Assembly: GCF_026151205.1 (NCBI RefSeq)
Contig: NC_087079.1
Coordinates: 2,389,730-2,453,729, forward strand
Source: Bolinopsis microptera
Lineage: Eukaryota > Ctenophora > Tentaculata > Lobata > Bolinopsidae
Length of the DNA: 64,000 bases
Direction: 5' to 3'
Positions within the stretch are counted from its first letter, which is position 1, and each line of letters opens with the position of its first letter. Both the position numbers and the translations under genes were made by a program. The notes beneath the pieces were generated by a model that saw nothing but the letters and a program-made list of their open reading frames with translations, was not told the DNA's origin and ran no database searches. Shown here in pieces: positions 27,868-64,000 of the stretch.

Positions 27868-28530
27868 AAATTATTCAAACAATATACACATAATATAGCA
27901 ATGACCCTATATAAAAATAATTATAATTATAAAAATTCTGTAAAAATGGTACAAATTTAAAAACTGAGGTAAAATAAAACCCTTTGTAATAATATATGTA
28001 AAATCCACTAAATCACATCACAACAAAAAGCAGTTTAGACCACCATCCAACAAGCACTCCATGACCTTTTAGGGTTTAAGAGTGTTGATCAGGTTAAGGT
28101 CCAAATCACTTATTGCCGTGGGTGGAAGGGTTCTGGTACCTCTGTACCCCCTGATAGAGATTATACAGGTTCTGAGTAGATCAAAACGCAGTCTGCGTCT
28201 GACAAATGACATCACATCACAATACCGTTGGCCTTTCTTTAGGCTGATCTTTTCAGCGAGATGTTTTAGGAACTGTGAAGCCTCGGTTGCCATTCCTCCT
28301 GTAGTACTGAACACCAGTGGCGTGAAGGAAGCCTTTTCAACATTTAGGACTCTGTCATTGTACTCACGTTTTTTATTTTTCTCGTGAGATTGGTACATCT
28401 GTGAGATGCTCTTGTCACTGTTGGACTGGGCTTGAGGGTGAAGTACCCTTACATCTGTGAATGCCCTGTCCAGCGGCGACCAAAACGATCTCGCACTGAT
28501 GTCCAGTCAGTTTTATTTTAGATTTAATAA
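27868..28530 (-). mobile_element. Retroelement 3' fragment (family E), minus orientation
   Basis: The frame 28515-28069 encodes the same C-terminal domain as the intact copy at 42041-42577 (SARSFW, DRAFTDVRV, MYQSHE, SFTPLVFSTTGGM, LRT). It is followed by the shared 3' UTR block ending near aaattattcaaacaatatac at 27880. I recognise this domain from proteins at the end of invertebrate retroelement polyproteins, but I cannot name the clade with certainty. Confidence 0.65.
28069..28515 (-). pseudogene. Retroelement polyprotein C-terminal fragment
   Basis: About 148 codons are continuous from SARSFWSPLD to the TAA at 28069. The upstream part of the polyprotein is absent or out of frame. Compared with the 42-kb copy it shows many conservative replacements, so the two copies are not recent duplicates. 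Confidence 0.6.
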
Positions 28531-41927: not shown

Positions 41928-42019
41928 GTTAAAACATGGGTAGATTTAACAAACAATGCATTAGATGTGCAGTTCATGTCATGATTGAATGATTATTCAA
42001 TTTAATTATTATTAAATTT

Positions 42020-42700
42020 AATTCAATTAATGCAGAACTAATGAGAACTGTGAAATGCAAGGATGTGCAGACTGAGCCAGTTCTCCTTCCAGTTGATGGT
42101 CTAGAGTTACCAAAGGGAACAGTCCTAGGAGACCAAGCTAGGCTGGACATTTCTGCAAGATCGATTTGGAATGCTTCAGAGAGGGCATTTTTTGATGTAA
42201 GGGTATTTCATGCCCCAGCCCCCTCCAATGCAAGCAAATTGATTCCAGCGATGTACCAGTCCCATGAAAATGAGAGAAAGCGATGTTACAACGCAAGGGT
42301 TCTTGAAGTGGAGAAAGGAAGCTTCACACCTTTAGTTTTCTCGACTTCTGGTGGAATGGGTGGTGAAGCTGAAAGACTGGTTAAGAAGCTGGCCAGTAAG
42401 ATGGAGTACCACACCGGCCAGAGGTACTCGGATGCTGTAGGATACATTAGAAAGCGCTTTCGCTTTGAAATCCTAAGAACAACAGTGATTTCTCTCCGTG
42501 GAGACAGAGGTGCGAGAAAAAACATTGTTGATATAAACAGTCTAGATCTCAACTTGGAGCCACAAGGCCAAGGGTAATTTTCGATTGTTTAGGAAACTTT
42601 TTTAATTCTTAAAGGGTAGATTTTATATAGGGTCATTGCTATATTATGTGTACGTATATTGTTTGAATAATTTTATAAAAAATTTAATTCAATTATAAAA
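42020..42700 (+). mobile_element. Retroelement 3' fragment (family E), best copy
   Basis: An open frame (42041-42577) is followed by a 3' UTR that includes gggtcattgctatattatgt. The same 3' end recurs in reverse at 27868 and 29176, so three copies of this family lie in the window, all strongly 5' truncated. Confidence 0.7.
42041..42577 (+). pseudogene. Retroelement polyprotein C-terminal domain, open frame
   Basis: 178 codons. Conserved blocks are ARSIWNASERAFFDVRVFH, MYQSHENERKRCYNARVLEV, GSFTPLVFSTSGGMGGEA, GQRYSDAVGYIRKRFRFEILRT and SLRGDRGAR. This domain is common at the end of retroelement polyproteins in cnidarians, sponges and lancelets; its biochemical role is not known to me. No start region or partner frames remain, so it is treated as a truncated element although this part has no stop. 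Confidence 0.55.
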
Positions 42701-43471: not shown

Positions 43472-43608
43472 TTCGCTCGCCCAAAAATTTCACGTGACTT
43501 TGGTTTTTATGGTCTTGCAGCCGTACTAAACGGTTTTACATAAACCCTAATCCCAACCCTAACCCTAACCATAACCCCGAAGCTATCCATAATCCTTATC
43601 ACAACCCT

Positions 43609-43791
43609 TGTTAAATCAGAGAAGCAATGACACACGTTGATAAGTCAGGAAAGAAGTCAATAGATATACAAAGACCCCACGGCTAACAGAGACATCATAT
43701 ATATAACATACTCCTGAAATATAGGGAGTTAACTCACATTCAAATATAGATACAAACATATAAAATATAATAGGAGAATATCAAGTTCACA
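43609..43791 (-). repeat. 3' LTR of the copia element
   Basis: 183 bp, direct repeat of 49630-49812; starts tgttaaatcag and ends gttcaca on the plus strand. Confidence 0.96.
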
Positions 43792-43812
43792 ATCTCCCTA
43801 AACTTTCTCTCA
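43792..43812 (-). promoter_or_regulatory. Polypurine tract of the copia element
   Basis: On the minus strand gagagaaagtttagggagat abuts the 3' LTR and would prime plus-strand DNA synthesis. Confidence 0.7.
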
Positions 43813-44057
43813 AATATTAAAAATGTTTAAATATTAAAAATCCCTAAAAACAACATACCCAAGTATCAAACTGGGCTACCTTTAAAACACAGATTCTGCC
43901 GTAGGTCAATTCAATCAAAACAATAGAATTATATCAAATAATTCATTCTCATTCATTCACACTTTTTATTTTAAAAGTTCAGTTCTAACTTTCATTATAC
44001 ATTACAGTTTAATAGTTCAATTCCAACGTTCATTACACATTACATCAATTACTGAGC

Positions 44058-44658
44058 TTACAATACAGAGTACTGTCTCAGTTCACTAGGAAGTGTCCCT
44101 TTTTCTAACACCTCACGCAACAAAGACGAAGATGCACCAGCCTTTGTCAAACAGTCTGCAAGCTGGAGATTTGTTGGAACCCACACATAACGTACTTCAT
44201 TTCTGTTGAATCGTTGTCTTAGACAAGCCATGGGAATCCTCAACCCTTTGTCTTCAAGGGTGTTTGTTGTTTTCACAGCATCAAAGAGAGACTTGCAATC
44301 CGTTATACAGACTATAGGAACATCTATTTTCACAATTTCATTCCACTGCGCTTTAATCAGCTCTGCAGACTCCAGGCCGTCAACTAATGCCCAACTTTCA
44401 GCAGCTAATGTGCTCTTACATACTTTCTTTATCTTTCTACTCTGCCATGTAAGTGGACAGCACTGACCAGATCGGTCAACCATCAATACAAGATGCCCAC
44501 CTTGTGAGGATCCATCAGCCAGGTTACCAAAGGAAGCATCACTGAATACAACCATTGTTGTGTGTTGAAGGTCAAGTGAAGGAAACCTGATTGACAGTGG
44601 GTTTTTCTGCATAAACACAATTGTCTTGTTCACCAGTTTCAGATCTTTGATCGTTCCC
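44058..44658 (-). pseudogene. Copia RNase H part, separated from the rest of pol
   Basis: Contains the RNase H acidic motifs VFSDASFG, STLAAESWAL and CITDCKSL, then VRYVWVPTNLQLADCLTK, typical of the copia pol C-terminus, ending in a stop at 44058. It joins in frame with the upstream part if the nested element and one copy of the 5-bp duplication are set aside. Confidence 0.9.
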
Positions 44659-45767
44659 CACAGTGGGCTACCATGCTAGCATAGGCCTAAAATCGACTTT
44701 CTTAAATTTCTTTGAAAATAAGCTTTCCTTATTGTAAAACGCTAGCCCGATTTCATGCAAGAAACCGTAATTAAAAACTTTGCAAGATGCCAAAATGGCG
44801 TCGCGTGAAAAAATAGCATTTTTCACTGTCAAGAAATTTTGCCTTTTTTAGCCAAAAATTGCCTAATATTTATTATTTCGGGCTAAAATGCCTGATCAAG
44901 GCAGTTTTTAATAATTGAAATATAGTATAGTACTTAAGAATACTCAGCCATCTAAAAAAAACTGTGTGACTTTAACATTTTCACCTGATTTTTGACCGCG
45001 CCTTTTTTATGGCGTGTATTTTAGGCAATTTTTGGGGTATTTAACGACAGAAATCGTTGTTGGTTTGCAATAGTTCGGTATAATGCATGGTATCATCAGA
45101 AAGCTTAGACAATTCCCTATCAGATGCAATAAGAATCACTTTGGGAACTTTTGGGCAACTCTGTTTACAAAATTAAGAAACTCAAAAATTGGGTAAAATT
45201 TGCTGCATTTTTAGATAATTTATGAGCTCAATTTTGCTATTAAATTGACATATTTTAGTTATTCTCCATGTTTGTGGCATTTTTTGCATCCTAGACCAGA
45301 TGCATATGGATGAAAAATCAAAATATCACAATTATTATAGTTAAAATTGATAAAAATCCAAAAAATCGTGATTTTAAACGAAATTTTTGAAAATAACAGG
45401 AACAATTTTGGTGTTTCAGAAAATTTTGGTCATATAAATGGGCACAACTTTTGTTCTGATCAATATTTTTTCATAATTCAAAAAGATTCGAGTTCCTAAG
45501 ATAGCTGTCCTTCGTTTACAGTTCATAAAAGAGCTTTAAAATTGATTAAACCTCTAAAAAAACAACTTTTCCTGGGATCAGCCTCCTATTTTTGGACTAC
45601 AAAATTGCTCAAAATCGGCCCAAAATTTTTTTCTGAGACATTTTCAGCCCTGTAAATGATTGGAATCGTATTTTTGTACCCAAATTACCTTAGAAACAAA
45701 GTTAGGGGCATGTGTGGTGGTCTAAAATACCCTATGCTAGCATGACCCCCACTCACAGCCCACTGTG
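44659..45767. mobile_element. Non-autonomous DNA transposon with CACAGTG ends and 5-bp TTCCC duplication (Transib/RAG-like ends)
   Basis: Both ends begin CACAGTGGGCT and carry a second block CATGCTAGCATAGG. The blocks are 2 bp apart at the left end and 12 bp apart at the right end. TTCCC flanks it at 44654-44658 and 45768-45772. The copia frame is continuous across the site once the element and one TTCCC are ignored, so the borders are exact. Five-base GC-leaning duplications and CACWRTG heptamers are known features of Transib transposons and RAG recombination signals. The 1.1-kb interior is AT-rich without a transposase, so it must be moved in trans. No clear nonamer is seen. Confidence 0.72.
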
Positions 45768-48700
45768 TTCCCGAAGCATAGGAGTTGGATGCAATGCATG
45801 TGCCATACGCAATATCTGGTCGTGACTGTGTTGCTGCCCAGAGCAGCTGTCCTGCTACTGATCGCAACTGACTTCTTTCTGCCTCATTGATTGGACATGC
45901 ATTCAGTTTTACTTTGTTCTGGTCGATTTTGATTCTGCTCACTTGATTTACATAACCCAGCTGTGATATTTTGATTGCCCTGTAACTTTGACTGAGATCG
46001 AGCCCAGTGTACGTAAAGGATGTATCGACTTCCATACTGAGCTTGTATTTCATTTTTAAGGCACCAATGACCTCTTTGATGAATATTTCCAGTCCTCCAA
46101 ACATAAGATCATCAACATGGATCACTATGATCCCACACGGCTTATCATTTCTCTGTAAAAAGAAAAATGATTCATCGTACACTGACACTGTTACACCAAG
46201 CTCTACTAGGGTATCTCTTAGTTCGACATACCACATTCTTGGACCATCGACCAAGCCATAGATGCATTTGAGGAGTTTCCACAATTTTCCAGATACCTTA
46301 GCTTCATTTGGTGGTTTAATGTATACTGTTCTTGAGATATCTTTTCCCTGTAGAAAAGCAGCCTGTACATCAATGTGCTGCAGTTTCCAATGCTCTGCTT
46401 GCAAAAGAGTAATTGCCAATCTGATTGAGTCCCTACTGCATGTTGGGGAATCTGATCGTATTGCTTGATTTTTCTCCTGATAGCCTAGAGCAACTAACCG
46501 TGCCTTGTACACATTCGTGGTATTCTTTATCTTCTTTGTGATTACCCACCTCACACCAATCGTTTTCTGACCTTCATCAGGAACTTCCTCATAGACTTTA
46601 TTGGTACAAAACTTTTCAAGCTCTGCCTCCTTAGCATCAACAATTGCTTGTTCACATGAATCTGTAACGCTTGTAAACATAACTTTATGTTCCTGCTCCT
46701 CTTCTGTATCTTCGTGCCATTCCTCTGTTAACTCAAACCAGTCGACACAATGAGTTTCTTCCTCCCCATCAAGCTGAATGTTCAGGCAGTTTTTGTATTT
46801 TCCTCCAGCCTTACCTGCTCTACTAAGGATGTAAGCCTTCTCCCAGACATCCTCTTCTCCCTCTTCAGGGTACTCGGGTTTGTACATCACAGAAGTTTTC
46901 GTCTTAGGCAGGTTTTTATTTCCATTACCATTAACACTGGCTGTGCTTACAGGAGCAATAGAAGGAGTATCTATTTCATCAGTTATTTGCGCCTGAGCCA
47001 ATGGCAAACTGTCATTTTCATCCTGATTTCTTTCTTCTGTTCTTGTCATATTTTTCTCAAAGTCAGATAATTCATCATCGTTCGATTCTGAAGGAGCTTT
47101 GACACTGACGGGATCACTTTTGTCCTTCAAATTACCAGTTTCTTCTAATTCAGGGACATATGTTGGCTTAATGTGACAAGGATGTACCTTGATGATTTGA
47201 AATCCATGCTTTACAACAAACGTCTGACCATCCCGACCTATGACAACACCTGGTCCATGCCAGGAGTCACTGTTGTTTCTTTTATAGAAAATCTTTTCCC
47301 CTGGATCGAGATGAACATCATTACATGTTCTGACCTGGCTTTTCAAAGCTCTCATGATCTTGGAACTATTCTCTGCTCTTATAAACCCCTCTCTGGCAAT
47401 CCTCATTGCTCTTAGATGATTCTCTACAGTTTCACTACAGACACTACTACTCGATTCCATTGCAGGAAGCTTACTGTCTATCACATTGGGGAAAGATGGA
47501 TTTCTACCCATAACCAACTGCATGGGTGAATACCCACCCGTCATTTGTAAAGAGTTTTTAGCACTAAGTGCCCAGCTCAAAGCTGTTTTCCACGAACAAT
47601 TCGAATCTTGCTTTGTCTTTATCATACTTTCAGCTAGAACTTGATGATGGCGTTCAACCATACCATTGCTAAAAGGACTTTCAGCTGCCGATTGTTGTGA
47701 TTCGATATTGAATCTCTCACACATTTCTACATATTCTGCATTAGAAAACTCCCCTCCATTATCGGCCATAAAACGGCGGGGAGGCCAGAACTGTGCTATC
47801 CACCCAGAACAGATTGCCTCTACAATTGTCTCTTTTCGTTTATTTGGAACCAACAATGCAACTGAATATCGTGTAGCACAGTCAATCATGTGCAGAAATG
47901 TTACCTCTCCCTGGACCGTTTTCAAGTCCATAGCTACACAATCATTAAACACTGTTCCTCGTGGGAGACCAACTACTGGTCTGGGCTTTGGCTTAGAGTA
48001 TCTTTGACACACTTCACACTTTTGGCATACATCCTCTAGTACCTCAAGAAATAGTTTAGAGTCAAAACCTGCATTCTTTAGGAGGGTCTTTAGTTTGTAC
48101 ATCGGTGCATGGGCAAACTGTCTGTGGAGTTTAAGTGCCTTTTTCGCCATAAGCTTTTTGTTGTTCCCACCAAAAGTTTCATCTGTAACTGTGAGAAATA
48201 CTTTCACACTGGAGTCCACAAGACTCCTCTTTTTGTTACAGATAGGCACACAATAGTGTCCAGATTTGCACTCCAAAAGGGGTATTTTCTCTCCATTGAA
48301 CTCGAGAGTATCTTCAAGAAAGTTAAGGATTGCACCAACCTTTTTTAATGCAGGCTTGCTCAGCAGAAGAGGAATATCACATTTGACAACATTTGCCTCA
48401 ATCAAGATTCTTTTGCTTCCGATTCTTCCAGGAATTTTAATGAGCTTATTTGACACAACTGACTTACCATCTCCAAACGTGAAAGGTGTCTGGCAGCTAG
48501 TTGAAGACATCATGATCTCTCTCTCAGCATCATCAAGTGTTTCTATGTACTGGCTGACCCAATTCTCGCCAACGACAGATTTTGTACAACCTGAATCGAT
48601 AACTGCACAAGAAAGAGTCTCAAAAACTAGTGAATTCACTTCACTGTTTTGCTGGTAAAGCACAGACTCTGGATCAGCCACTGTAGTAAGCAATGTTATG

Positions 48701-49605
48701 TATGTACGTGACAATGAGTCATCTACTTCCATCTCAGCAGGTTGACCTTGAACCAAGAAATTTCTCGATGTCCCTTGTTCAGATCTCCAATTTGGGTTTG
48801 GTGCTGCTTGATTAGTACACTCTCTTGAGTAGTGACCATTCTTCCCACAGTTGAAGCAATTGATCTGAGATCTGGGCCTCTTACCTCTCACATACGGATT
48901 CCCCTGATTTCTAAGAGTTCCCCTACTCCTCATGGGACCTCCTCTATCTTGTCCTCTACTCCGTCTGTAACCATGGGAGGTGAAATTACATGACTCTTCT
49001 GGTTCAGTCTTGATACAAGACCCCGTCACTTGGTCAAGTCCTGATCTGTTCACATGTACAGAAAAAATCTTTGATATCGTTGAGATCATTTCTGCATATG
49101 TAAACTCTTTAACCGTTGCCAGTGCAAGATCCACTTTTTCACTTGACAGATTTGCACTGTTTAGAACTCTATATGCTAGTATTGCATCTGGCAGTTCCAT
49201 CTTGTGTTTCCTCAGGTCTTCATACAACTTAGCGAATTCAGAAATAAATGCCTGAAGATTCATACCCTCTTGACGTTCAAACTTTTCAAATCGACAATAT
49301 GCTCGATATGCCATGTGAGATGAGTCCTCCTGGTATATACTGTCCAGGCGTTTTATAACTTTGTCCAACCCGTCATCAGCAGTTAAGACGTCTATTCCTA
49401 ACGATCTCACATGGTTCTTCACCGGTCCCTCAGACAATTCCAAAAGGAATGCAGTTGCCCGACGCTTCTTTTCGTAGGATGTGAAAGTATTCCATAGGTC
49501 AATATCCAACCGCCAGTCTTCATAATTCTGACCTTCCTTGTATGCCGGTGGGGCCTTTTGTGGTCCAACAGCTTTCCTTTCTACCACCTTATCTTCACCT
49601 GTCAT
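45768..49605 (-). CDS. Copia gag-pol polyprotein, 5' part through reverse transcriptase
   Basis: About 1280 codons from the ATG at 49605 (MTGEDK), chosen because the upstream frame extends into the LTR. Domains in order: gag with UBN2-like helical region; CCHC knuckle CFNCGKNGHYSREC (about 48860-48815); aspartic protease DSGCTKS (about 48600); integrase zinc HH-CC (about 48130-48000) and DDE core (AMDLKTV, MADNGGEFS, NGMVERHH); reverse transcriptase with HIDVQAAFLQG (about 46380) and IHVDDLMF (about 46110). All catalytic residues that I can check are present. The frame is cut at 45767 by the CACAGTG element and then runs into its sequence to a chance stop at 45685. Confidence 0.93.
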
Positions 49606-49611
49606 TTTTGA

Positions 49612-49629
49612 ACCGCTGCCTGCTACCAA
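49612..49629 (-). promoter_or_regulatory. Primer binding site of the copia element
   Basis: Directly after the 5' LTR the minus strand reads ttggtagcaggcagcgg. TGGTAGCAG is complementary to the 3' end of animal initiator methionine tRNA (CTGCTACCA). Confidence 0.65.
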
Positions 49630-49812
49630 TGTTAAATCAGAGAAGCAATGACACACGTTGATAAGTCAGGAAAGAAGTCAATAGATATACAAAGACCCCA
49701 CGGCTAACAGAGACATCATATATATAACATACTCCTGAAATATAGGGAGTTAACTCACATTCAAATATAGATACAAACATATAAAATATAATAGGAGAAT
49801 ATCAAGTTCACA
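49630..49812 (-). repeat. 5' LTR of the copia element
   Basis: 183 bp, identical by eye to 43609-43791. It should contain the promoter; the minus strand has a tatatatgatgt stretch that could act as a TATA region. Confidence 0.96.
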
Positions 49813-50554
49813 AACCTAACCCGAGCCCTAAACAATCGAATTCATGTTTTACTAGCCTGTCACGTGACCAAAACGGTTTTTTGCCCATAACTCTCCAGGG
49901 AAGCATTTTTACCCTACGTCATGGGGGGTGATTCGGAATCAATGAAACGAAAAGTTTTCAATGAAACGAAAAGTTTTATTTTACATTCCTTTAATCATAA
50001 ATAAAATAAGAGCTTAAACCACTAATTAGTTATCTAGAAGTAAACTTGAGGAAATATTTTTGGTGATTGTATATAATTATTTAAAAAACTTTATTTGGTT
50101 GTTAGTATTTTTTATTATGGTAAGTGGTTGAATTTAGTGAGACAAGGTCAGTTTCTCTATTATCTTAGAAAAATTTCTACTTTACAGTAGGCAATGCTGA
50201 GTGGCAGGAATGAGGGACCAAAACGCTTGGGGCTAACAATGGCCCATTTACAAACCACTTCAGACATGGCAATGATGTCATTTATGCTTAATTCGTCTGA
50301 AACTGACCCTACTGCACTTCTAACATTCTATAAAAATCTCTTCTAAAATAGGTATAAAAATGCATAACACAAAACACACAAAAAAAATGTTTATAATCCT
50401 TCTATAATAAATTTCTATAGAACTTTTAAATTTCTATAAAACTAATAAACCTATATTATATATTCATTTTGCACCCAGAGAAAGATGTGATCACAGAGGT
50501 AGTTTCGATGTTATGTTCATGACAAGGTATGGGGCTGCTGCAAGTTATATTTTG

Positions 50555-52360
50555 CTAAGATATTACCGCTTTTTCAAGCTTAAGTAATCTAGGCAAGGTC
50601 AATTTTAAAGTTTTTGAATTTTGTCGAACGCTGTTTAAGGCTAAGTTCCAGTCATTTGGTTCTCCTTCCTTTTGAGTGTGAGTGATGGTGATTCTTATGG
50701 ATGATTTGAGGTGATTGGGCTTATAAGAGGTGAATGTAGTTAGCATGAGATTTTGTCGTACTGTATTCCATATTGTCCCTGCTCTGTATATGTAGCTGTC
50801 TGATGGTTTAGGTGTGAGAATGAGTGTCTCTTTTCCAAGTCTGCCAGATGTTTCAAAGAGGGAGTATAGTGATATAGGGGTTCTATATTTCAAGACCTTG
50901 AAGATGTCATTAATACAATGGTAGAAGTACAGATTATGCACATTCATGATTTCATGGGTGTTGAAGAGGGGTTTTGTATGCTCCTTTCTGTAGAATTCCT
51001 TGCCCAGGATTTGCTCCCCGTAGGGTCTGCATCGTGCACTAGTTTTAAATTTATCCAAGTATGCTTCTTTATCTCCAAACATTATGCGGGCACACATTTT
51101 CTGTGCTTTGAACAGAGGTTCAAGTTTTTTGTTAGATGCCCCTCCCCAGACAGTTATACCATATGCAAGATAGCTTTCAAACAGAGTGTGATATAGATCT
51201 TTATGGAGTGATGTGGGAATGTTATCTTTAATTCTATTTAGCATGCCACAGCAGCTGGCTAGTTTTTTTGCTAATTTCCTTCTATGTGCGTTCCAGTTTA
51301 GGTCTTCATCGATTGTTACACCTAAGAATTTAGTTTCATGTACTCTCTCCAAGGGTATGCCATTGATATTGATTTCTTGATCAGAGGGTGTATCTTCATC
51401 TTTGTTGGATCGAGAGTTTGAGAATTCAAGGTAACAGCTCTTGCCAGTGTTTATGTGAAGTTTATTGGCAAGCATGTAGCGGTGTACGGAATTTAGGACT
51501 TCATTGGCTTTTTTGTATGCTAGGTTTTTACTTTTTGCAGCGACGAAGATATTTGTGTCATCAGCAAATAGAACAAATTTAGAGTTCTTTTCAGAGTTTG
51601 TAAGATCGTTTATGTAAATTAAGAACAGAAGGGGCCCTAAGCAGCTCCCTTGTGGCACTCCAAAAAGCACAGGTAGAGTATTAGATATTTCATTGAGCAC
51701 ACCAACATATTGTTTACGGTCGGAAAGATAACTTTCCAGGAGTTTGTGTGCCCGTCCTCTGATCCTGTATGTGTTTAATTTTTTAAGAAGTATTGAGTGA
51801 TCTATTGTATCAAATGCTTTACTTAGGTCGATAAAGATTCCTAAAACATGATTACCGGCTTTGAGTGACTGCTGAATGTGGTGAATAGAGTAGTTGAGTG
51901 CATGTGATGTTGAATGACCCTTTCGGAACCCAAACTGGCTATCGTGCAGTATTCCCTGACTCGAGAGAAAACCATAAAGCCGTGAGTAGATAACCTTTTC
52001 AAAAATTTTACCGAAAATTGGGAGAGTGGAAATTGGACGATAATTTTGTAAGTGTTCTTCGTTATCTTTTTTGTAGATGGGGCTAATTTTACCTATCTTA
52101 AGGATGGCGGGAAAGCATCCTGTTGACATAAGGTTGTTGTATTGTATGGAAAGCACTGGGCTGAGAATGTGTGAGGCCTTTTTAATAACACTAATGGGGA
52201 AATCACTAGCTTTGCCATTTTGTAGCTCAGAAATGATATGAGATATTTCACTCTCAGTGCAGTCTGTTAAGTACATCGAATTTGGGTTAGTTTTTGGTAA
52301 AAATTCAACAAATGAAGGAAGTGGCTCAATTTTCATTTCCCCATCAACTTGTTCATTCAA
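50555..52360 (-). CDS. LINE ORF2, C-terminal part: reverse transcriptase
   Basis: 601 codons from an internal ATG; the true frame joins the upstream part across the A8 run and already reads as ORF2 from about 52455. Motifs: NGKASDFPISVIKKAS, KIGKISPIYKK, NYRPISTLP, GFRKGHSTSHAL, FIDLSKAFDTIDH, GVPQGSCLGPLLFLIYINDL and FADDTNIFV (about 51572-51546), then KFLGVTIDEDLNWNAH. All catalytic aspartates are present. Element-type context: non-LTR target-primed reverse transcription. Confidence 0.92.
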   Translation of the reverse strand: MNEQVDGEMKIEPLPSFVEFLPKTNPNSMYLTDCTESEISHIISELQNGKASDFPISVIKKASHILSPVLSIQYNNLMSTGCFPAILKIGKISPIYKKDNEEHLQNYRPISTLPIFGKIFEKVIYSRLYGFLSSQGILHDSQFGFRKGHSTSHALNYSIHHIQQSLKAGNHVLGIFIDLSKAFDTIDHSILLKKLNTYRIRGRAHKLLESYLSDRKQYVGVLNEISNTLPVLFGVPQGSCLGPLLFLIYINDLTNSEKNSKFVLFADDTNIFVAAKSKNLAYKKANEVLNSVHRYMLANKLHINTGKSCYLEFSNSRSNKDEDTPSDQEININGIPLERVHETKFLGVTIDEDLNWNAHRRKLAKKLASCCGMLNRIKDNIPTSLHKDLYHTLFESYLAYGITVWGGASNKKLEPLFKAQKMCARIMFGDKEAYLDKFKTSARCRPYGEQILGKEFYRKEHTKPLFNTHEIMNVHNLYFYHCINDIFKVLKYRTPISLYSLFETSGRLGKETLILTPKPSDSYIYRAGTIWNTVRQNLMLTTFTSYKPNHLKSSIRITITHTQKEGEPNDWNLALNSVRQNSKTLKLTLPRLLKLEKAVIS

Positions 52361-52409
52361 TTTCGACGATATTGAGGCAAAGTACTCATAAAATTTGTTG
52401 GCTATGAGT

Positions 52410-53966
52410 CTACGTTCTGTGATGCGTACTCCGTCGACACAGAATTGAGGCTTTATGGTTTTTTTTGCATTTTCCTCTTAATTCATTGATAACTTCCCAA
52501 GTCTTTTTGCTGTCTCCTTGATGATCCATGATCTTAGTACAGTAATATTTCTTTTTTTGACTTTTTATTACACCTTTAAGACATCGACGATAGTTTGAAG
52601 ATTTGGTGTGGAGATCAATACTTCCATCTGGACTAAATTCTTTTGACTTTTTCGAGGCTATCCAGTCATCATACAGCTCCTCTTTAGTTGAAATAGCTTC
52701 TGAAATTCCATCTGTCATCCAAGGATTGTTAATTGGATTTCTTTTGGAGACTTTGGGTTTATCTAGTTTGCAGTTAGAGTCAATTGTATGTGTGAAGATG
52801 TTAAAGAAGGTTTCAAAGTTGGTACTGTTTGCCATGATATCTTCTTTAGATTCAAGGTCTGTAATTAAAGTATCAACATTTTTCTTGGAGAAGCTGTAGT
52901 GTTGGAGTAGCTTTTGGTCTGAAGAAGTTTCGTTCATAGGCATGCAAAGATTGAACATGGCTATGATTGGTTTGTGGTGGGAATTCATATCATCAATTAC
53001 CCCAGACATCGTGACGTGTTCAATGTCGTTGGTGAGTATATTGTCTATGCAGGAATGTTGGTGAATGTTTGTGGAATGAGTTGGTAATGAGATGAGCGGA
53101 AAGAATCCCAATGAAAGAAACAAATTTTCAAATTTTTGAGTTGTGGGATTTGTTCTCTTTAGAAGGTCAAAGTTGTAGTCTCCCAAAATTATAGATTTTA
53201 TGTCTTTGGGGAAGAGTGACTTCAGGTGTGTCAACTCATTGAGAAACTCTTTCGAGTCCCCATTGGGTGATCTATAAACCACACCAACATTAACTTTTTC
53301 ACTCCCTTTATTGACAGTAACAAAGAGTGATTCAAGGTTTTTAGTTGTACTGATAAGCTTGTCGTTTATGGTTGCATTGAAGGAACAGTGGATATATAAA
53401 CAGACACCTGTTCCTTTTGTTTTATTTGGAATTTTGTCATTATAGAAATGCGAGTAGTTGCTTAATTTGTACAGATCACCTTTGTTTTGATTAACATTTG
53501 TTTCAGCAAGAGCAATAGCTGAGTAGGTAAGTTTTTGCATGCTCATTTCTGCAGAAAAGGAGTCAAAGTTGGATAGATTTCCATCTATATTGTAGAACAT
53601 TGTGCTAAAATCAGAGTTATTAGGGACCTTTTCATGGACTGATTTAAGTTTGTAACTCTTACAGTTTTCCAAAATTGTAGATGCTTGGTTAATGCAATCA
53701 AAAGACTCTAGAAAGTCTTCTGAGTAGAACTTATCATCAGACTCTTTGTCAAGTCCTATGAGTTCCTTAAAGGGGTTGTAGATCATGACACTAATACTGA
53801 AGCAGTTGGTACATAAGTGTCCAGAGCCTCCTTGGCTAAATTTTGATTTTTTGAAGCATAATTTGTGTATTATTTTGGGACAATTTTGACATTCCAAGTA
53901 TCCTTGACCAATAAGGATGTTTTTGTTGCAGCAGTCGCATATTTCTCGTTTGATTGATGGAGTCAT
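52410..53966 (-). CDS. LINE ORF2, N-terminal part: zinc motif and APE endonuclease
   Basis: 518 codons to the frame break. Residues about 8-60 have a PHD-like cysteine/histidine pattern (CDCCNKN...CQNCPKIIHKLC...CTNC). Residues about 120-350 are an AP-type endonuclease: MFYNIDG, ALAETN, GTGVCLYI, GVVYRSPNG, ILGDYNFD and SHHKPI, which together nick target DNA. The linker to reverse transcriptase (KKKYYCTKIMDHQGDSKKTWEVINEL) is typical of CR1/jockey-type elements. The frame is lost in an A8 run (52466-52459) and ends at 52410. Confidence 0.88.
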   Translation of the reverse strand: MTPSIKREICDCCNKNILIGQGYLECQNCPKIIHKLCFKKSKFSQGGSGHLCTNCFSISVMIYNPFKELIGLDKESDDKFYSEDFLESFDCINQASTILENCKSYKLKSVHEKVPNNSDFSTMFYNIDGNLSNFDSFSAEMSMQKLTYSAIALAETNVNQNKGDLYKLSNYSHFYNDKIPNKTKGTGVCLYIHCSFNATINDKLISTTKNLESLFVTVNKGSEKVNVGVVYRSPNGDSKEFLNELTHLKSLFPKDIKSIILGDYNFDLLKRTNPTTQKFENLFLSLGFFPLISLPTHSTNIHQHSCIDNILTNDIEHVTMSGVIDDMNSHHKPIIAMFNLCMPMNETSSDQKLLQHYSFSKKNVDTLITDLESKEDIMANSTNFETFFNIFTHTIDSNCKLDKPKVSKRNPINNPWMTDGISEAISTKEELYDDWIASKKSKEFSPDGSIDLHTKSSNYRRCLKGVIKSQKKKYYCTKIMDHQGDSKKTWEVINELRGKCKKNHKASILCRRSTHHRT

Positions 53967-53970
53967 TTAT

Positions 53971-55083
53971 TCATACAGGGTTTAGTGGGCCACCTCTGAG
54001 TGCGTTAGAATATAACCTACTGCTTGATAATTTGGTTTTACTAGATTTAAATTGAAAGATGCAGCGTTTTAATAGAACAACAAGGATGCTGGTGCCTTTT
54101 CTATTGAGATGGAGTTCATCTCCAACATCAGTCTTTGCAAGATCATAATCTAAAAGATTTGTTCGCTTGTCTAGGAACTTGATAAAACCTTCAACTAGGA
54201 TAACTTTAAGGTCACACTGGCATAAATCTTCAGCAATAAATCTATTAAACATAAAAATTCTACGGTTCTTGTCGTGTGATTTTGTGGGAAGTACTGGACA
54301 TATGAATATTTTACATTTAGGGTTGTACTTCCTTATCAGACTAAGTTTTGTTTTATATTGCTTATAAAGTTCTTTGACCTTTTGGTCGGTAACTTTGTTC
54401 TTAAGGTCATTAGTGCCCACCATTAGCACAACATTACGGTATGATGTGCATGATAGTGGGTCTATTGAGTCTATTGTAGGAGCCCAAGATCTGAGGCCAG
54501 GGGTCGATTCACCAAGTTTACCTTTGCCGCTTCCGAATGTTATCGGCCCAAAGTTAGAATCCCCTATGAGAATAGTTGAGTTGAAGTTTGACCAGTGGAT
54601 GGCCCTGAATGTTAGACTGAAGCGAATGCCGTCAGGGACAGAATCATCATCTTCTTTTTTGATGGTGTGTTTGAAGAAGTCTTGACTATGCCTAGTCATC
54701 TGGTACATGCTTCTGCTATTACATTTGACAGTCATTGTTTCGTCAGACTGTAGGTTCCTAAACTGAAGGTGACGTGGGATCCCTAGAGATATGGTGAAGA
54801 TAGATGACTTTGGGTCAATATCCCCCTCATTGTCTGCGTGTTCTGGGAGAGTTGACTCCTTATCATCATACATGTTCACTAGGCAAGAGTTTAGTCTGTA
54901 GTGGTGCCTTTCCTCTTGGTGTGAAGACCCATACTCATTGTTGAGACGCTCCATCAGTTTCTTGATGGGTTCAGGCATCACCAAAGGGTTTGACTTTGAA
55001 CCCATGTACTTGTAGTGCTCTCCATATTGAAGTACATTTCTTTGCCCCTCTAGTGAGAATTCTGCGAGTTGAGTCTGTAGCAT
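53971..55083 (-). CDS. LINE ORF1: AlkB-type 2OG-Fe(II) dioxygenase fused to SGNH hydrolase
   Basis: 370 residues. Residues about 12-165 read as an AlkB domain: RNVLQYGEHYKYMGS, then NSCLVNMYDD, the iron ligands His82 and Asp84 (PEHADNEG) and His139 (FFKHT), and the 2-oxoglutarate motif R-x-S-x-T-x-R at Arg154-Arg160. AlkB enzymes oxidatively remove alkyl groups from nucleic acids. Residues about 168-345 read as an SGNH esterase: GDSN (174-177, nucleophile Ser176), GTND (223-226) and D-x-x-H (Asp322, His325). SGNH esterases are known in ORF1 of some CR1/L2-type LINEs; the AlkB part is unusual. All key residues are present and the frame is intact. ORF1 stops 4 bases before the ORF2 start (TGAATAAATG), which suggests termination-reinitiation. 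The true N-terminus may be longer. Confidence 0.8.
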   Translation of the reverse strand: MLQTQLAEFSLEGQRNVLQYGEHYKYMGSKSNPLVMPEPIKKLMERLNNEYGSSHQEERHHYRLNSCLVNMYDDKESTLPEHADNEGDIDPKSSIFTISLGIPRHLQFRNLQSDETMTVKCNSRSMYQMTRHSQDFFKHTIKKEDDDSVPDGIRFSLTFRAIHWSNFNSTILIGDSNFGPITFGSGKGKLGESTPGLRSWAPTIDSIDPLSCTSYRNVVLMVGTNDLKNKVTDQKVKELYKQYKTKLSLIRKYNPKCKIFICPVLPTKSHDKNRRIFMFNRFIAEDLCQCDLKVILVEGFIKFLDKRTNLLDYDLAKTDVGDELHLNRKGTSILVVLLKRCIFQFKSSKTKLSSSRLYSNALRGGPLNPV

Positions 55084-55176
55084 GTTCTGTCAGCGTTCTA
55101 AAATACACCGTATGAGATCAATTTCATACCGAAAGGGCCTATTTCACAAGAATGTTCTTAAAATTTGGGCGAGCGA

Positions 55177-55332
55177 TTTAGTAGAAGCGGAAGCCAATAA
55201 CTGACGATGTTAAGCCTTCGCAGCTAGCTCGGCAACCCCTGCAGTGGTCCTGCATCTTTCACCTAGCTTTCGCACCGTTGCGGGAGCGCTTGTTTCAAGC
55301 ACAAGGGCTCTGGATAGAGCAAGTGCATTTTG
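55177..55332. other. Dispersed GC-rich repeat pieces
   Basis: gcacaagggctctggatagag (about 55299) recurs at about 55566 and, diverged, at 55945 and in reverse at 43330. It is probably a subterminal segment of family B or D elements. Confidence 0.5.
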
Positions 55333-55772
55333 TTGACAGATGTTACTCGTCTAAATTTCTTCAAAGTACCCTGTGTAGCCTGCGCAAAGTTATTTTGAGA
55401 GATATTCTGAATTAAATAATTATTGGCACGCTGTGAACTGATCTAGTAAATCGTCAATTATTCACCATGTACGTATCCCACTAGGCACTGCACTAATTGA
55501 TAGCATAGTATTACTTCACCTAACCATGTGCTTTCGCGCCACTGCGGGCTCGCGCTACTGCAAGCACAAGGGCTCTGGATAGAGCAATAGTATTACAATT
55601 ATGTACAGATTCGTGTTTGTCATACGTTGTAGACCTGCAGCGCACTTGACCATTGACCATTGTTAACGGTCTGGCCCGGCGCGCGCGCTACCACGTAGCA
55701 CGTGCCATAATATTTCGAGAAGAAAGCGGCGCGCGCTACTTCGAAGAAATTTAGACGAGTAACATCCGTCAA
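55333..55772. mobile_element. TIR family D, short copy, 440 bp
   Basis: Left end TTGACAGATGTTACTCGTCT and right end agacgagtaacatccgtcaa match the ends of the 8119-9961 element. The right subterminal part (ggcccggcgcgcgcgctacc and onward) also matches. No coding capacity. Confidence 0.75.
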
Positions 55773-56249
55773 CAGCGCACGAGATCGCGGCTATATTGTA
55801 GTCACGATACAAGTGAAACTTAGTGAAACACTTAGTAAAACGTTGTCATACGTTGTATGACCCCTGTATCGTCAGGACTTCTCATAGCCATGTGTATACG
55901 CGTACTGCGTGACGCGCTTGTTTCGGCGGTCGCGCGCTACTGCAAGCGAGAGGGCTCTGGTTAGAGCAAAGTTAGGACGATAAAGTGAATACGACCGTAG
56001 GGGTCACAACGTGATACAAGTAAAACGACATTGGAGGTCGCGACGTGATACAAACTTAACCCTGAGTGATCTAGTAACTATTCGAAACCTAGTTATTCCT
56101 TGTATCACGTGGTATGGTGACCCCCACTGTCGCTTCCTGTAGAGTTTCTACGATACAGGTGAGCCGCACACTCTGCACTCGTGCGCGGCGGGTCATACAT
56201 GACAAGTTATTCCTCTACTTTGACCGGACCTCAACCCTAACCCAATCCC
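55773..56249. other. Intergenic, repeat remnants, no gene
   Basis: 55870-55975 is an inverted copy of 43305-43400. Nothing coding recognised. Confidence 0.45.
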
Positions 56250-56332
56250 TTACCTGGGGACCTCAGGCTATTATGTTCATAAACATATGAATAGAGATTC
56301 GGCGGAATGACAGGCTGAGCGCCGCCCAGTAA
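56250..56332. mobile_element. MITE family C, best single copy, 83 bp
   Basis: TTACCTGGGGACCTCAGGCT ... GCCGCCCAGTAA with short inverted ends (TTAC-TGGG). It is flanked by cccaatccc and cccaattcc, so a short duplication is possible. Confidence 0.8.
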
Positions 56333-56513
56333 CCCAATTCCTAACTGAAGTATCCACTTACGTACACCTTTACTTGTAGCGCGATGCGTTACTGTGCCGC
56401 GCCGCGCACTCAATGAGGCTTCTCACAGAAGATCGGCGAGATGCGCTACTGTGCCGCGCCGAGCTGCAAGATGAATTGACATCGTCAATTAAACCTTCAC
56501 TGACGTTCCCTTT

Positions 56514-57582
56514 GTAGGTTTATAACCTACCAGGACGCGCGCCGAGTTGGACTCGTCGACGGTCCTAATATTTGGAACAAATATTTTACGAGTATTACCT
56601 GTTAATATAAATGTTTTCCTGAGAAAAGGCAGTAAGTCACATCAATGTTACTTTGAGAAAATTGAAAATGGGACAAACGTGTTTGTCGTTTTTCATTTTT
56701 TACGTAATTTTACTCACATAGAAGCGGTTAATTTAAACATTTGCCCTCTTTGATCGACGGCCCCAAAAGGGGAGGGGGCCGCGGCCCGGTCGCCCGGCGT
56801 GCACGAAAAAGGTATGCAACTTGCAGCAAAACATTTATGCGTAAATAAATGATTGTCATATGTCCTAAACATGCTGAAATGTTAAAAGCATAAATTCACC
56901 AATGACCAAAACTGATCTTTAAAATAATTCTTCTCGCAACCACTTCGTTAGATCGGCAAAATGCTTGACTATGCATTGTTAATGGTTTGGCCCGGCGCGC
57001 TACTTCGTAGCACTTGCCATGTGCCATTTCGAGAAGAAAGCGGCGCGCGCTGCAGCTCCTCCTGTGGCTAGTATAGCTAGAATCGAACAAGGGCAACATA
57101 TTTGATATTGGCGCGTGGGCACGTACGCACGCAGACATGACGGTTGCAAAGCTACCAGTACCATATAAAAAACCTTGTGCGCTAACCCCTGTCTTTGACT
57201 CTTTTGTGCCTTCGGTGCTTTGACTTTTGAGTCTTGGATCGCGCGATCGGGGAAAAATCTACCAACATTAGTAACGTAAGGCGTCAAAGTTTTGTCTGTG
57301 CCAATGCAACTAGAAGTCTTGGCGCTTTATGTTACATTGACTATGGTGCACTGTGAAAGTGTCACTAGTATAGAATAGCTATAGGTTCTTCAGTGCACAT
57401 AACTCAGTTCATTTTAGTACTTCACCTAACCATGTGCTTGCGCGCCGACCCGAGCGCGCTTGTTTCACGGAAAGGCGAGCGCGCTACTCCAAGCTTAACG
57501 GGTGATACTCGTAAAATATTTGTTCCAGGACCGTCGACGAGTCCAACTCGGCGCGCGTCCTGGTAGATTAATTATAAACCTA
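56514..57582. mobile_element. TIR element, about 1.07 kb, ends around 85 bp (family F)
   Basis: The left arm (tgtaggtttataacctacca, then gacgcgcgccgagttggact...) is repeated inverted at 57501-57582. The interior includes a family D piece at about 56985-57055 and no transposase. An isolated end is present at about 43125-43166. Confidence 0.75.
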
Positions 57583-61569: not shown

Positions 61570-63762
61570 CTAAAGAAAAATACCACATTTATAACCGGTC
61601 CTGGAAATTACTGGATACCTAGAACGTTCGCCGAAACTAACTTCGAGTGAGGAAACAAATCGTATTGATGAACAATCTAGGCTCACTGTGATCGGTTCAG
61701 GCTCTGATTACTGGCTTTCTTTTATAGTAATTATAGTGCACACCAGCCAATTAGTCGAAAGGATGCTAGCCATTAAGCGAACAGCATGGTATTTAGAGAA
61801 CACGTGACTATAGCACTTGACAATAGCACTTGACAACGATACTCAACTAACTTTATCTCATAAGTACCTTGGAACAAACCTTGTTTGAGTTTAAACATAA
61901 CAACTTTTTCTTGAATACTACAACACCAGCCACTGATACTATCACAAGGATCACAATGATCACGATAACTGCGATTGCCCAACCTGGAAAACCTTCCTCA
62001 TCTGAAATAATAAAGAGGGTGTTATTGCTTAATCAGTGAATGGATTTGACTTATCGTGGGCAGGTGCAGCATATCTTTAGGCACGTGACAGCGAAATTAA
62101 CCAATCAGTTTCCACTAACGCAGATAAAATTTATAAATCGATGTCAAGAGTTTTAAAGATATACTCCGCCTCCCTAAATAAATCAAATCACCTTAAAAAC
62201 TTTCATAGCAAATTTCAAATTATTTGGTTTATTTAATACACATTGCAAGAAAATTTGCTTTAAAAGTTGATGCACAGTTTAGCAGTCGAGAGTGAGTGAA
62301 TGCTGAGATGAAATTAAATAGAAATATTTCGCCTTGCCCAGGTTGTTGACTTTAATCCTCAAAACTAAACAGTAACCTAAAATCTGACTAAATTCATCCG
62401 CAACCTTTCCACCAGGTCACTACTCTAGCACAGTGGCGTAAACAGATGGGAAACAAATTACTGGCGTGGAACGTCCGAAGGTCGAACGAAGGTCACATAT
62501 ATGTATGTATATTATGTATGATTAAGTGTGTGTGTGTGTGTGTGCTGTTTATTTTTGTTCGACTTAAAGAATAAATGTCTTAGTGCTTCACCACAGATAA
62601 GACTAATTAATCAGGAAAGGCTTGTTTCTTGTCACAAAGAAGTATATAATATAATTATATCCTTTAATAGTGCTTCGGTACAAACAAATTAACTAATCCC
62701 TTTAACTGTTAAAGAAAACGGATTTTGTCACAAAAAAGAATACTAGTTTAAATGCACATTGCACAGGTAAGACAGCGAATCTATCAATAAGACAGTCGTC
62801 TTGGCATCTTTATGTCGTTACTCAGTGTGTTCATGGCTGTCTGACTTGCTCATTAAATTGAAGCCCTGGAGTTTATCATCCTTACAACCACAGTTATAAG
62901 TTTGGTGGTTTCAGATAAAAATGGAGTGCACTCGTATAAAGATGGTTATCGCACACGTATAAAGATGGTTATCAAAAATTCCGAGCTCTGCAAAGAAAGT
63001 CGAATTGATGGAACTGGAAGTAACGGAAGAATCTTATATTGATTATCAAGGGTTACAAATAAAAGATAGCAACATTGATATCTCTTTCAATACGCCCTAG
63101 ATCTCTTTAGTACTATAGCAAATTTAGCTTTGAGAGGCTTCATTTAAAAATGGTAAAGCTGACTTTGAAAAGGCGTACTTTTCTATGAAACTCACTTGTG
63201 CTAGGGCTTGTGTCACCTTTTTCAATACACTTCGGAAGATTCTTCAAACTGGAAACGGTCCCATCAGTCTCGCAAGTCAGCTGAGAATGTTCCGGAACAT
63301 AATCAGTTTTGCATTTGACAGTGAAGTTTTGACCCGCGTTAACCTCTTCTGGACTTATGCTTTCAACATTATCAGTGTCCGTGAGTTGTGGTTTAGAACA
63401 GGTACCAGTAACACACTTTGGGGAATGATCCAAACTGGACACAGTCCCATCAGTCTTACAGATCAGTCCAGCATTTTCAGGAATATATCCAGATCTGCAC
63501 AAAACAGTGAATTTCTCTCCAGCGTTGACCTCCTCCGGGCTTACACTTTCAACATTATCAGTCAGTTCTGGTTTAGAGCAAGTTCCAATAACACAGTTTG
63601 GTGATGCAGGAGACAACTTCCCATCTTTCCCACACAATAGTTCTGTTTCACCTGGCACATAATCAGACATGCAAGTGATGGTGTACTTTTCTCCGGCTTC
63701 TATATCAGCAGTGTCAGGGGTGACAGTAGCAACGTTGGAGTCTGTAGGCTTGCTGCACTTTT
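61453..63762 (-). CDS. Sushi/CCP-repeat single-pass membrane receptor, 3' part (continues beyond window)
   Basis: Exons: 63762-63217 (three CCP-like repeats), 62001-61880 (transmembrane) and 61569-61453 (cytoplasmic end). Phases fit: the first exon ends in phase 1 and the second starts with two bases. Each repeat has the pattern C-S-K-P...AG-x-x-(F/Y)-T-(I/V)-x-C...Y-(V/I)-P-(G/E)...L-x-C...P-x-C. The membrane helix is GWAIAVIVIIVILVIVSVAGVV followed by a FKKKLLCL stop-transfer. The tail ends AAYENVDI, where YENV fits the Y-x-N pattern bound by Grb2-type SH2 domains. The signal peptide and more repeats should lie past 64000. Adhesion, immune or allorecognition roles are possible; none is shown. 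Confidence 0.75.
61880..62001 (-). CDS. Transmembrane exon of the CCP receptor
   Basis: 40 codons after acceptor atttcag: a short EEGFPGW lead, about 22 hydrophobic residues, then a basic stop-transfer FKKKLL. Donor gtttgt in phase 0. Confidence 0.85.
62526..62544. repeat. (GT)n microsatellite
   Basis: Nine and a half GT units in the intron between the CCP exon and the transmembrane exon. Confidence 0.9.
62545..63216. other. CCP receptor intron, no other gene
   Basis: Contains an 18-base duplication (cgtataaagatggttatc) at about 62933-62970. No further exon recognised. Confidence 0.5.
63217..63762 (-). CDS. Sushi/CCP exon with three repeats
   Basis: 181 full codons after acceptor taaccag, donor gtgaca. 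Repeat starts are KCSKPTDSN, GTCSKPELT and GTCSKPQLT. Repeats two and three share NVES(V/I)SPEEVNAG and TDGTVSSL, so they arose by recent duplication within the exon. Confidence 0.85.
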
Positions 63763-64000
63763 CTGGTTAGAAAATGAGTTTAATATCTTCAGATGTTATA
63801 TCATTCAACAGCAACAATGCTGAAATAGCGAAGTAAAGAGCTCCTCACAAAAAATTCTTGAGCTCTTTAATACTAAGTTAGCTTGGCAATAACATGTAAA
63901 TTAAACATTTTATACAGTTAGAATTTGCATTCCGACCTGTACTGAATTTAATCAAAATAAATTGCATGCAACATAAATTGCATTCTATATTTCTAATAAC
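63763..64000. other. Intron of the CCP receptor at the window edge
   Basis: Upstream intron sequence on the minus strand, without a recognisable exon before the window ends. Confidence 0.5.

What the first reader, a model, noticed from the sequence alone, without database searches (positions are those of the whole stretch)
53971..55083. LINE ORF1 that fuses an AlkB-type dioxygenase to an SGNH hydrolase, with both active sites intact
Seen: His82-x-Asp84, His139 and R-x-S-x-T-x-R at 154-160 (AlkB), then GDSN 174-177, GTND 223-226 and D-x-x-H 322-325 (SGNH), in one open frame directly upstream of endonuclease/reverse transcriptase. Known: AlkB enzymes repair alkylated DNA and RNA and occur in some plant RNA viruses; SGNH esterases occur in ORF1 of some CR1/L2-type LINEs. 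Inference: the element may remove alkyl marks (for example m1A/m6A-like) from its own RNA or cDNA, protecting the template from damage or from host RNA marking. I do not recall a described LINE with this pairing, but I cannot search.
Basis: partly seen in the sequence, partly recalled or inferred. Interest (0 to 1): 0.88.

Follow-up and report, generated by a model that had tools for sequence, protein, structure and literature searches.

The report
Jumping gene carrying demethylase and esterase
A multicopy family of copy-and-paste jumping genes in this genome makes an accessory protein that joins a zinc finger, an AlkB-type nucleic-acid demethylase domain and an SGNH esterase domain, with both active sites kept by selection, so the element may clean chemical damage off its own RNA or DNA while it copies itself.

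Summary
Window ORF1 matches AlkB (PF13532, E 1.1e-20) and, more weakly, SGNH hydrolases, with every named catalytic residue in place. But this copy is 5'-truncated: 21 of 28 genomic copies examined have ORF1s of 627-746 aa, with a PHD-like finger and helical linker before AlkB and SGNH. ORF2 (zinc finger, endonuclease, RT) is broken by a frameshift here but open (1136 aa) in relatives. The genome gives 111 scored matches, window included. In 28 aligned copies (9 groups at 80% identity) AlkB ligands are kept in 27-28 of 28 and SGNH Ser, Asn, Asp, His in 28 of 28; AlkB dN/dS medians are 0.15-0.22. AlkB, SGNH and ORF2 distances covary, so the fusion looks old and inherited as a unit. By sequence the AlkB resembles ALKBH2/ALKBH3/AlkB (1-meA/3-meC repair) rather than ALKBH5. 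Best reading: ORF1p removes RT-blocking alkylation from element RNA or cDNA; activity and substrate are inferred. Ten paper searches listed no LINE with AlkB; the nearest case is an orchid Ty3/Gypsy element.

The parts
49939..55087 (-). LINE copy, 5'-truncated (5' end at 55087, 3' end at 49939)
   Evidence: blastn to longer copies of the same genome, e.g. L063 98.6% over 5155 columns, ends at these positions
53971..55083 (-). ORF1, truncated at its N-terminus; 370 aa, corresponding to about residues 286-655 of the 655-aa ORF1 of near-identical copies
54604..55047 (-). AlkB-type 2OG-Fe(II) dioxygenase domain (residues 13-160): H82, D84, H139, R154, R160, N70/Y72, E86
   Evidence: Pfam E 1.1e-20; AlphaFold pLDDT 86.2, pTM 0.82; Foldseek to ALKBH2 E 7.1e-12
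54064..54570 (-). SGNH hydrolase domain (about residues 172-340): S176, N225, D322, H325
   Evidence: Pfam E 2.3e-7, sub-threshold; motifs; S, N, D, H kept in 28 of 28 copies
53967..53970 (-). 4-nt gap between ORF1 stop and ORF2 ATG; 7 of 28 copies examined have an overlapping ATGA instead
52410..53966 (-). ORF2, first part: zinc finger (PHD/C1-like, about residues 8-55), then AP-type endonuclease region
   Evidence: weak profile matches; similar Cys/His-rich ORF2 starts in relatives
50555..52477 (-). ORF2, second part in another frame: reverse transcriptase (PF00078 E 4.5e-36 on the 601-aa ORF inside it)
   Evidence: relatives L064 and L067 have one uninterrupted 1136-aa ORF2
49939..49977 (-). 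3' tail: about two copies of a 19-bp tandem repeat; unit number varies between copies

Best explanation
This is a truncated copy of an old LINE lineage, recently mobile by the look of its near-identical copies, whose ORF1 protein is PHD-like finger - helical linker - AlkB dioxygenase - SGNH hydrolase, followed by an ORF2 of zinc finger - endonuclease - reverse transcriptase. Shown here: the architecture, its multicopy spread, conservation of both active sites, purifying selection, and joint divergence with ORF2. Inferred: ORF1p sits on element RNA in the RNP; its AlkB domain, using Fe(II), O2 and 2-oxoglutarate, removes base-pairing-face alkylation (1-meA/3-meC class) from template RNA or nascent single-stranded cDNA. 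Such lesions stall reverse transcriptases, so repair would raise the yield of full-length insertions; the SGNH esterase would act in RNP localisation or assembly at lipids, as proposed for ZfL2-1, and the zinc fingers could tether the RNP to chromatin.
Against: No activity or substrate evidence. The Pfam AlkB match starts only at profile position 42-55 of 194 even in full copies, so the N-terminal part of the fold is short or divergent. SGNH is below Pfam's curated cut-off in the window and in 8 of the 9 other ORF1s scanned, and unlisted in the ninth, L050. I saw no RRM or CCHC hit in ORF1 that would bind RNA. dN/dS pairs are not independent and NG86 is crude; two SGNH pairs reach 0.27-0.31 and one N-terminal pair 0.956.
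Confidence: 0.5

Rival explanations
1. The AlkB domain is an m6A eraser that hides element RNA from host RNA-mark readers, as proposed for the orchid Gypsy AlkB.
For: Precedent: an orchid Ty3/Gypsy AlkB demethylates m6A in ssRNA in vitro (PMC9289625, passages seen). Fold comparison also lists FTO, ALKBH6 and ALKBH5, lower down (ranks 45-49; FTO and ALKBH6).
Against: The orchid domain groups with ALKBH5 (PMC9289625), whereas this one matches ALKBH2/3 and AlkB by sequence; no ALKBH5 or FTO among the 30 PDB sequences at E<=10 or the 60 shown of 94 at E<=1. The HxDxE glutamate is kept in 28 of 28; ALKBH2 has it (alignment), ALKBH3 has it and ALKBH5 lacks it (recalled).
Confidence: 0.2
2. AlkB and SGNH serve as folded binding modules (nucleic acid, lipid) in the RNP; catalysis is dispensable.
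For: [quoted passage not shown]
Against: Catalytic positions are among the best conserved: 5 of 5 AlkB and 4 of 4 SGNH positions fall among columns identical in at least 27 of 28 copies (33 of 150 and 35 of 175 columns; hypergeometric p 4.0e-4 and 1.4e-3; related sequences, so p is a guide only).
Confidence: 0.2
3. The AlkB acts on something other than the element's own nucleic acid: host RNA or protein, or host genome lesions such as 3-meC left by DNA methyltransferases.
For: An ALKBH8 match in the profile search (E 2.7e-5). Loss of ALKB2 is named together with loss of DNMT1/3 as incomplete DNA-methylation machinery in arthropods (PMC8857917 passage).
Against: A domain fused into ORF1p, made next to element RNA, is most simply placed on element RNPs (inference).
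Confidence: 0.09
4. A chance or passenger fusion in one degenerate copy, without function.
For: The window copy itself is truncated with a broken ORF2.
Against: 111 scored matches, 9 groups at 80% identity among the 28 aligned, both active sites kept, AlkB dN/dS medians 0.15-0.22.
Confidence: 0.01

Closest known systems
ZfL2-1 (zebrafish CR1/L2-type LINE) ORF1p esterase, type IV ORF1 (PMC3905857, passages; PDB 4c1b)
   Same: SGNH hydrolase in LINE ORF1 upstream of endonuclease-RT; same catalytic set Ser, Asp-x-x-His, Asn; a helical (there coiled-coil) stretch N-terminal
   Different: AlkB is not mentioned there (word count 0); the sequence match is weak (E 0.033)
L2/CR1 LINEs with PHD fingers, including L2 subgroup 5 with PHD probably at the start of ORF2 (PMC4120745, abstract and passages)
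   Same: PHD finger in ORF1 and/or at the start of ORF2
   Different: AlkB and oxygenase have word count 0 in that paper; its esterase type was found only in two vertebrate groups (abstract)
Orchid Ty3/Gypsy element with AlkB (PMC9289625, passages)
   Same: Retrotransposon that carries an AlkB domain; HxD, H and RxxxxxR kept
   Different: LTR element; AlkB in a separate ORF2; ALKBH5-type, m6A demethylase in vitro; no SGNH or PHD in the passages seen
AlkB domains in plant Flexiviridae replicases (PMC544882, passages)
   Same: Selfish RNA-based replicator with AlkB fused to a replication protein
   Different: Virus replicase; AlkB distances there do not track RdRp (r2 0.10), while here AlkB tracks ORF2 (r2 0.78)
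ALKBH2/ALKBH3/bacterial AlkB
   Same: Fold, ligands, HxDxE motif
   Different: 22-24% identity to ALKBH2/3 in the fold alignment; free-standing enzymes; longer N-terminal part

Membership tests
LINE / non-LTR retrotransposon | Endonuclease plus RT in ORF2 after an ORF1 | tested here: met
   PF00078 E 4.5e-36; Exo_endo_phos only weak (0.015 and 0.055); uninterrupted 1136-aa ORF2 in L064 and L067
LINE / non-LTR retrotransposon | 5'-truncated copies and a variable 3' tail | tested here: met
   Copies end 5' at different points; 3' repeat number differs
LINE / non-LTR retrotransposon | Target-site duplication | tested here: inconclusive
   By eye no duplication at 49938/55088; an earlier 10-bp candidate lies elsewhere and is reached by 208 of 2000 shuffles
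CR1/L2 (Jockey superfamily) clade | RT phylogeny | not tested
   No named LINE RTs at hand; RT search of the genome did not complete (15 tries)
AlkB family dioxygenase | HxD...H iron triad, RxxxxxR, N-x-Y | tested here: met
   (Y72 is F in 8 of 28 copies, H82 is Q in one)
AlkB family dioxygenase | AlkB fold | tested here: met
AlkB family dioxygenase | 2OG-dependent demethylase activity | not testable with these tools
   needs an assay
ALKBH5-type m6A eraser | Affinity to ALKBH5/FTO rather than ALKBH2/3/AlkB | tested here: inconclusive
   ALKBH2/3/AlkB rank first by sequence; fold lists also contain FTO, ALKBH6, ALKBH5
SGNH hydrolase | GDS, Gly, GxN(D), DxxH blocks in order | tested here: met
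   S, N, D, H 28 of 28; G174 27, G223 27, N177 25, D226 25 of 28
SGNH hydrolase | Pfam curated score for PF13472 | tested here: not met
   31.9 bits against 32.9 in the window copy; 30.8 or less in the 9 other ORF1s. I call it SGNH-like by motifs and by the ZfL2-1, PatB and PAF-AH-type matches
Type IV (esterase) LINE ORF1 | ORF1 with an esterase domain, sometimes with zinc finger/leucine zipper | tested here: met
   SGNH-like domain plus PHD-like finger in ORF1, subject to the Pfam score above; AlkB is an addition to that type

The most novel reading that the evidence does not exclude
A retroelement that carries its own nucleic-acid repair enzyme in its RNP protein: ORF1p AlkB clears alkyl lesions that block reverse transcription of the template RNA or of the cDNA, which would make alkylation damage (or a host modification) a direct restriction point for LINEs.
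Probability: 0.45. Interest if true: 0.9.

Novelty: new variant of a known kind. Interest (0 to 1): 0.8.

Why it matters
It would be, as far as my ten searches reach, the first described LINE with an AlkB dioxygenase, and a natural three-part ORF1p (zinc finger of PHD type, demethylase, esterase). It makes testable whether base alkylation or methylation of retroelement RNA/cDNA limits retrotransposition, and gives a further case, beside plant RNA viruses and an orchid LTR element, of selfish replicators recruiting AlkB.

Tried and rejected
Rejected: chance or single-copy fusion. Rejected: the 370-aa frame as the complete ORF1. Rejected: TTCTAAAATA at 50341/55096 as target-site duplication; reached by 208 of 2000 shuffles, and alignment to other copies puts the ends at 49939 and 55087. 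Rejected: that the endonuclease S-H-H is damage in this copy; it recurs in 8 of 11 subfamily representatives, the other 3 not matching my text pattern.

Led nowhere: single-sequence AlphaFold of ORF1 (pLDDT 37.2); viral contigs and genome-contig scans with ORF1 or RT found no relative; alignment A1 too diverse to scan with; tblastn of ORF1 against phages and plasmids gave only AlkB-side matches, none covering 80% of the query. Invariance of positions such as H82, D84, E86, I95, G101, R104 in alignment A2 is partly forced by my search pattern, so I lean instead. ALKBH5 is missing from the 50 rows, which excludes nothing. An earlier count said 3 of 111 rows have stops; recounted, it is 2.

Literature: all 10 paper searches used; none listed a LINE with AlkB. 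Open-licence PMC only, no preprints, no Repbase text. No paper was read in full; passages only: PMC9289625, PMC3905857, PMC5408684, PMC544882, PMC9921365, PMC8857917, PMC11294593; outline, abstract and passages: PMC4120745.

Full report
1. Observation. Pfam gives 2OG-FeII_Oxy_2 (AlkB) E 1.1e-20 for residues 13-160 and Lipase_GDSL_2 E 2.3e-7 for 193-330, the latter 1 bit under its cut-off. Against solved structures the whole ORF hits human ALKBH2 (E 1.3e-3) and, weakly, the ZfL2-1 LINE ORF1 esterase 4c1b (E 0.086), which is the best hit for the SGNH part alone (E 0.033). PHROGs gives an alkylated-DNA-repair family at 6.3e-18. A profile built from 23 AlkBs of viral contigs, window left out, finds this ORF at 3.6e-23; the next of 1998 six-frame ORFs has E 3.9.

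3. The copy is truncated. The genome search answered once: the window lies in a 264.65-Mb genome of 232 contigs, and ORF1 has 111 scored matches out of 922 candidates, the window's own copy included and the count a lower bound. By my reading of that list 107 of 111 start at query residue 9 or earlier; the other four start at 98, 124, 168 and 180, as 5' truncations would. Two of 111 contain stops. 81 of 111 sit in open frames of 600 aa or more. Of 28 loci examined, 21 have an ORF1 of 627-746 aa from its first Met, among them L051 and L053 with altered N-termini; 7 are shorter (L035, L037, L039, L040, L044, and L052 and L054, which the fetched stretch cuts). Near-identical copies L036, L038, L041, L042 have 655 aa, of which the window has the last 370. 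Alignment to longer copies ends at window 55087 and 49939, so the element is 49939-55087 and Met1 is internal.

4. Full architecture. Nine full ORF1s and one ORF2 were scanned with Pfam: AlkB is above its cut-off in 9 of 9 ORF1s (E 2.1e-20 to 2.5e-11); PHD-type fingers are sub-threshold hits in 7 of 9 (not in L047, L050, though their Cys/His residues align); Lipase_GDSL_2 is sub-threshold in 8 of 9 and unlisted in L050. A profile of 18 ORF1s against the PDB (60 of 94 rows shown) gives ALKBH2 2.3e-8, ALKBH3 2.6e-6, ALKBH8 2.7e-5, the BPTF PHD finger 7.9e-4, and SGNH-type proteins (DUF459, PatB) about 1e-3; the LSD1 rows fall on the helical linker and look like coiled-coil similarity. ORF2 opens with another Cys/His-rich finger in the relatives (translations) and contains RT (E 5.3e-35) and a weak endonuclease match. 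At the ORF1-ORF2 junction 13 of 28 copies have a 4-7 nt gap, 7 an ATGA overlap (L043, L048, L050, L053, L054, L057, L060), 6 another overlap (L045, L051, L056; L052, L061, L062), and L040 and L058 have no start nearby. Stop-start coupling is an inference.

5. Activity of the lineage. Of the 8 family loci fetched at length (L063-L070), L064 and L067 have ORF1 (676-codon frame) and ORF2 (1136 aa) both open; L069 has a 1138-aa ORF2 with a truncated ORF1; L070 has a truncated ORF1 and a 1005-aa ORF2 frame whose homology stops short of the end; L063, L065, L066 and L068, like the window, have interrupted ORF2s. Near-identical copies (97-99% protein identity) and differing numbers of the 19-bp 3' repeat suggest recent movement.

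6. Conservation and selection. Twenty-eight ORF1s were aligned, all that I had fetched from the genome as ORF1 loci. They form 9 groups at 80% identity and go down to 38% (AlkB) and 36% (SGNH) identity to the window. AlkB: H82 27 (one Q, in L051), D84 28, E86 28, H139 28, R154 28, R160 28, N70 28, Y72 20 (F in 8). SGNH: S176, N225, D322, H325 28 each; G174 27, G223 27, N177 25, D226 25. Catalytic positions are enriched among the best-conserved columns (5 of 5 and 4 of 4). NG86 dN/dS for AlkB: medians 0.215 (dS 0.02-0.1, 28 pairs), 0.173 (0.1-0.4, 7 pairs), 0.145 (0.8-1.2, 6 pairs); SGNH 0.078 (18 pairs), 0.314 (2 pairs), 0.110 (6 pairs); the N-terminal part is looser, 0.573 (4 pairs) and 0.242 (12 pairs), with one pair at 0.956. 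Pairs share branches. AlkB, SGNH and ORF2 distances covary (r2 0.77, 0.78, 0.91; 11 representatives of 20 loci with enough ORF2), unlike plant viruses, where AlkB does not track RdRp (r2 0.10; PMC544882 passage).

7. Function. By sequence the domain sides with ALKBH2/3 and bacterial AlkB: 30 of 30 PDB sequences at E<=10. These enzymes reverse 1-meA and 3-meC (established knowledge; PDB titles name such lesions). Both block base pairing and stall reverse transcriptases, which is why AlkB treatment is used before tRNA sequencing (recalled). A LINE that brings such an enzyme in its RNP protein would protect template or cDNA. The m6A alternative has a precedent in orchids (PMC9289625, passages) but that domain is ALKBH5-like. 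SGNH: the ZfL2-1 esterase is an active hydrolase, and a role for lipids in retrotransposition is suggested (PMC3905857, title and passages). None of this is shown for the present protein.

8. Known or not. PMC4120745, on ORF1 types of 448 Jockey-superfamily elements, does not contain the word AlkB (count 0). PMC3905857 and PMC5408684 describe esterases in CR1, L2, RTEX and Penelope-type elements, word count of AlkB 0. Ten full-text searches showed only the orchid LTR case for AlkB in a retrotransposon. Unpublished, subscription-only or Repbase-only examples may well exist; the protein database was switched off.

9. Verdict. Real, multicopy and under selection; a new variant of a known kind (LINE with an enzyme-bearing ORF1). 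The biochemical role is the open part.

Noticed in passing
window 43604-49813: A Copia-type LTR retrotransposon (1326-aa polyprotein frame 45685-49665 with RVT_2, integrase core, zinc knuckle) between 189-bp direct repeats 99-100% identical, i.e. a young-looking insertion next to the LINE's 3' end.
   Followed up: partly
window 55164-57570: Dense mosaic of GC-rich inverted and direct repeats (arms up to 44 nt, 98% complementary) upstream of the truncated LINE; pieces recur near 43.1-43.5 kb.
   Followed up: no
ORF2 endonuclease, window about 53.0 kb, and subfamily loci: S-H-H in place of the S-D-H motif usual in LINE endonucleases (recalled), in 8 of 11 subfamily representatives; 3 did not match my text pattern.
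   Followed up: partly
window 28069-28506 (-) and 41993-42577 (+): Two ORFs that look alike by eye, with no Pfam match; perhaps pieces of another repeated element.
   Followed up: no
window 35550-36539 (-): 329-aa ORF without Pfam match, coiled-coil-like, resembling another kind of LINE ORF1 (impression only).
   Followed up: no
window 1-1992 and 24605-25296: Long tandem arrays open in several frames on both strands.
   Followed up: no
window 33915-34853, 37705-39909, 63140-63766: Host-like genes: palmitoyl-protein thioesterase, DNA polymerase family B and a sushi-domain protein.
   Followed up: no
L012:1532-1990: An AlkB of only 153 aa on a viral contig, 39% identical to the window domain over residues 57-161, also short at the N-terminus.
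   Followed up: no
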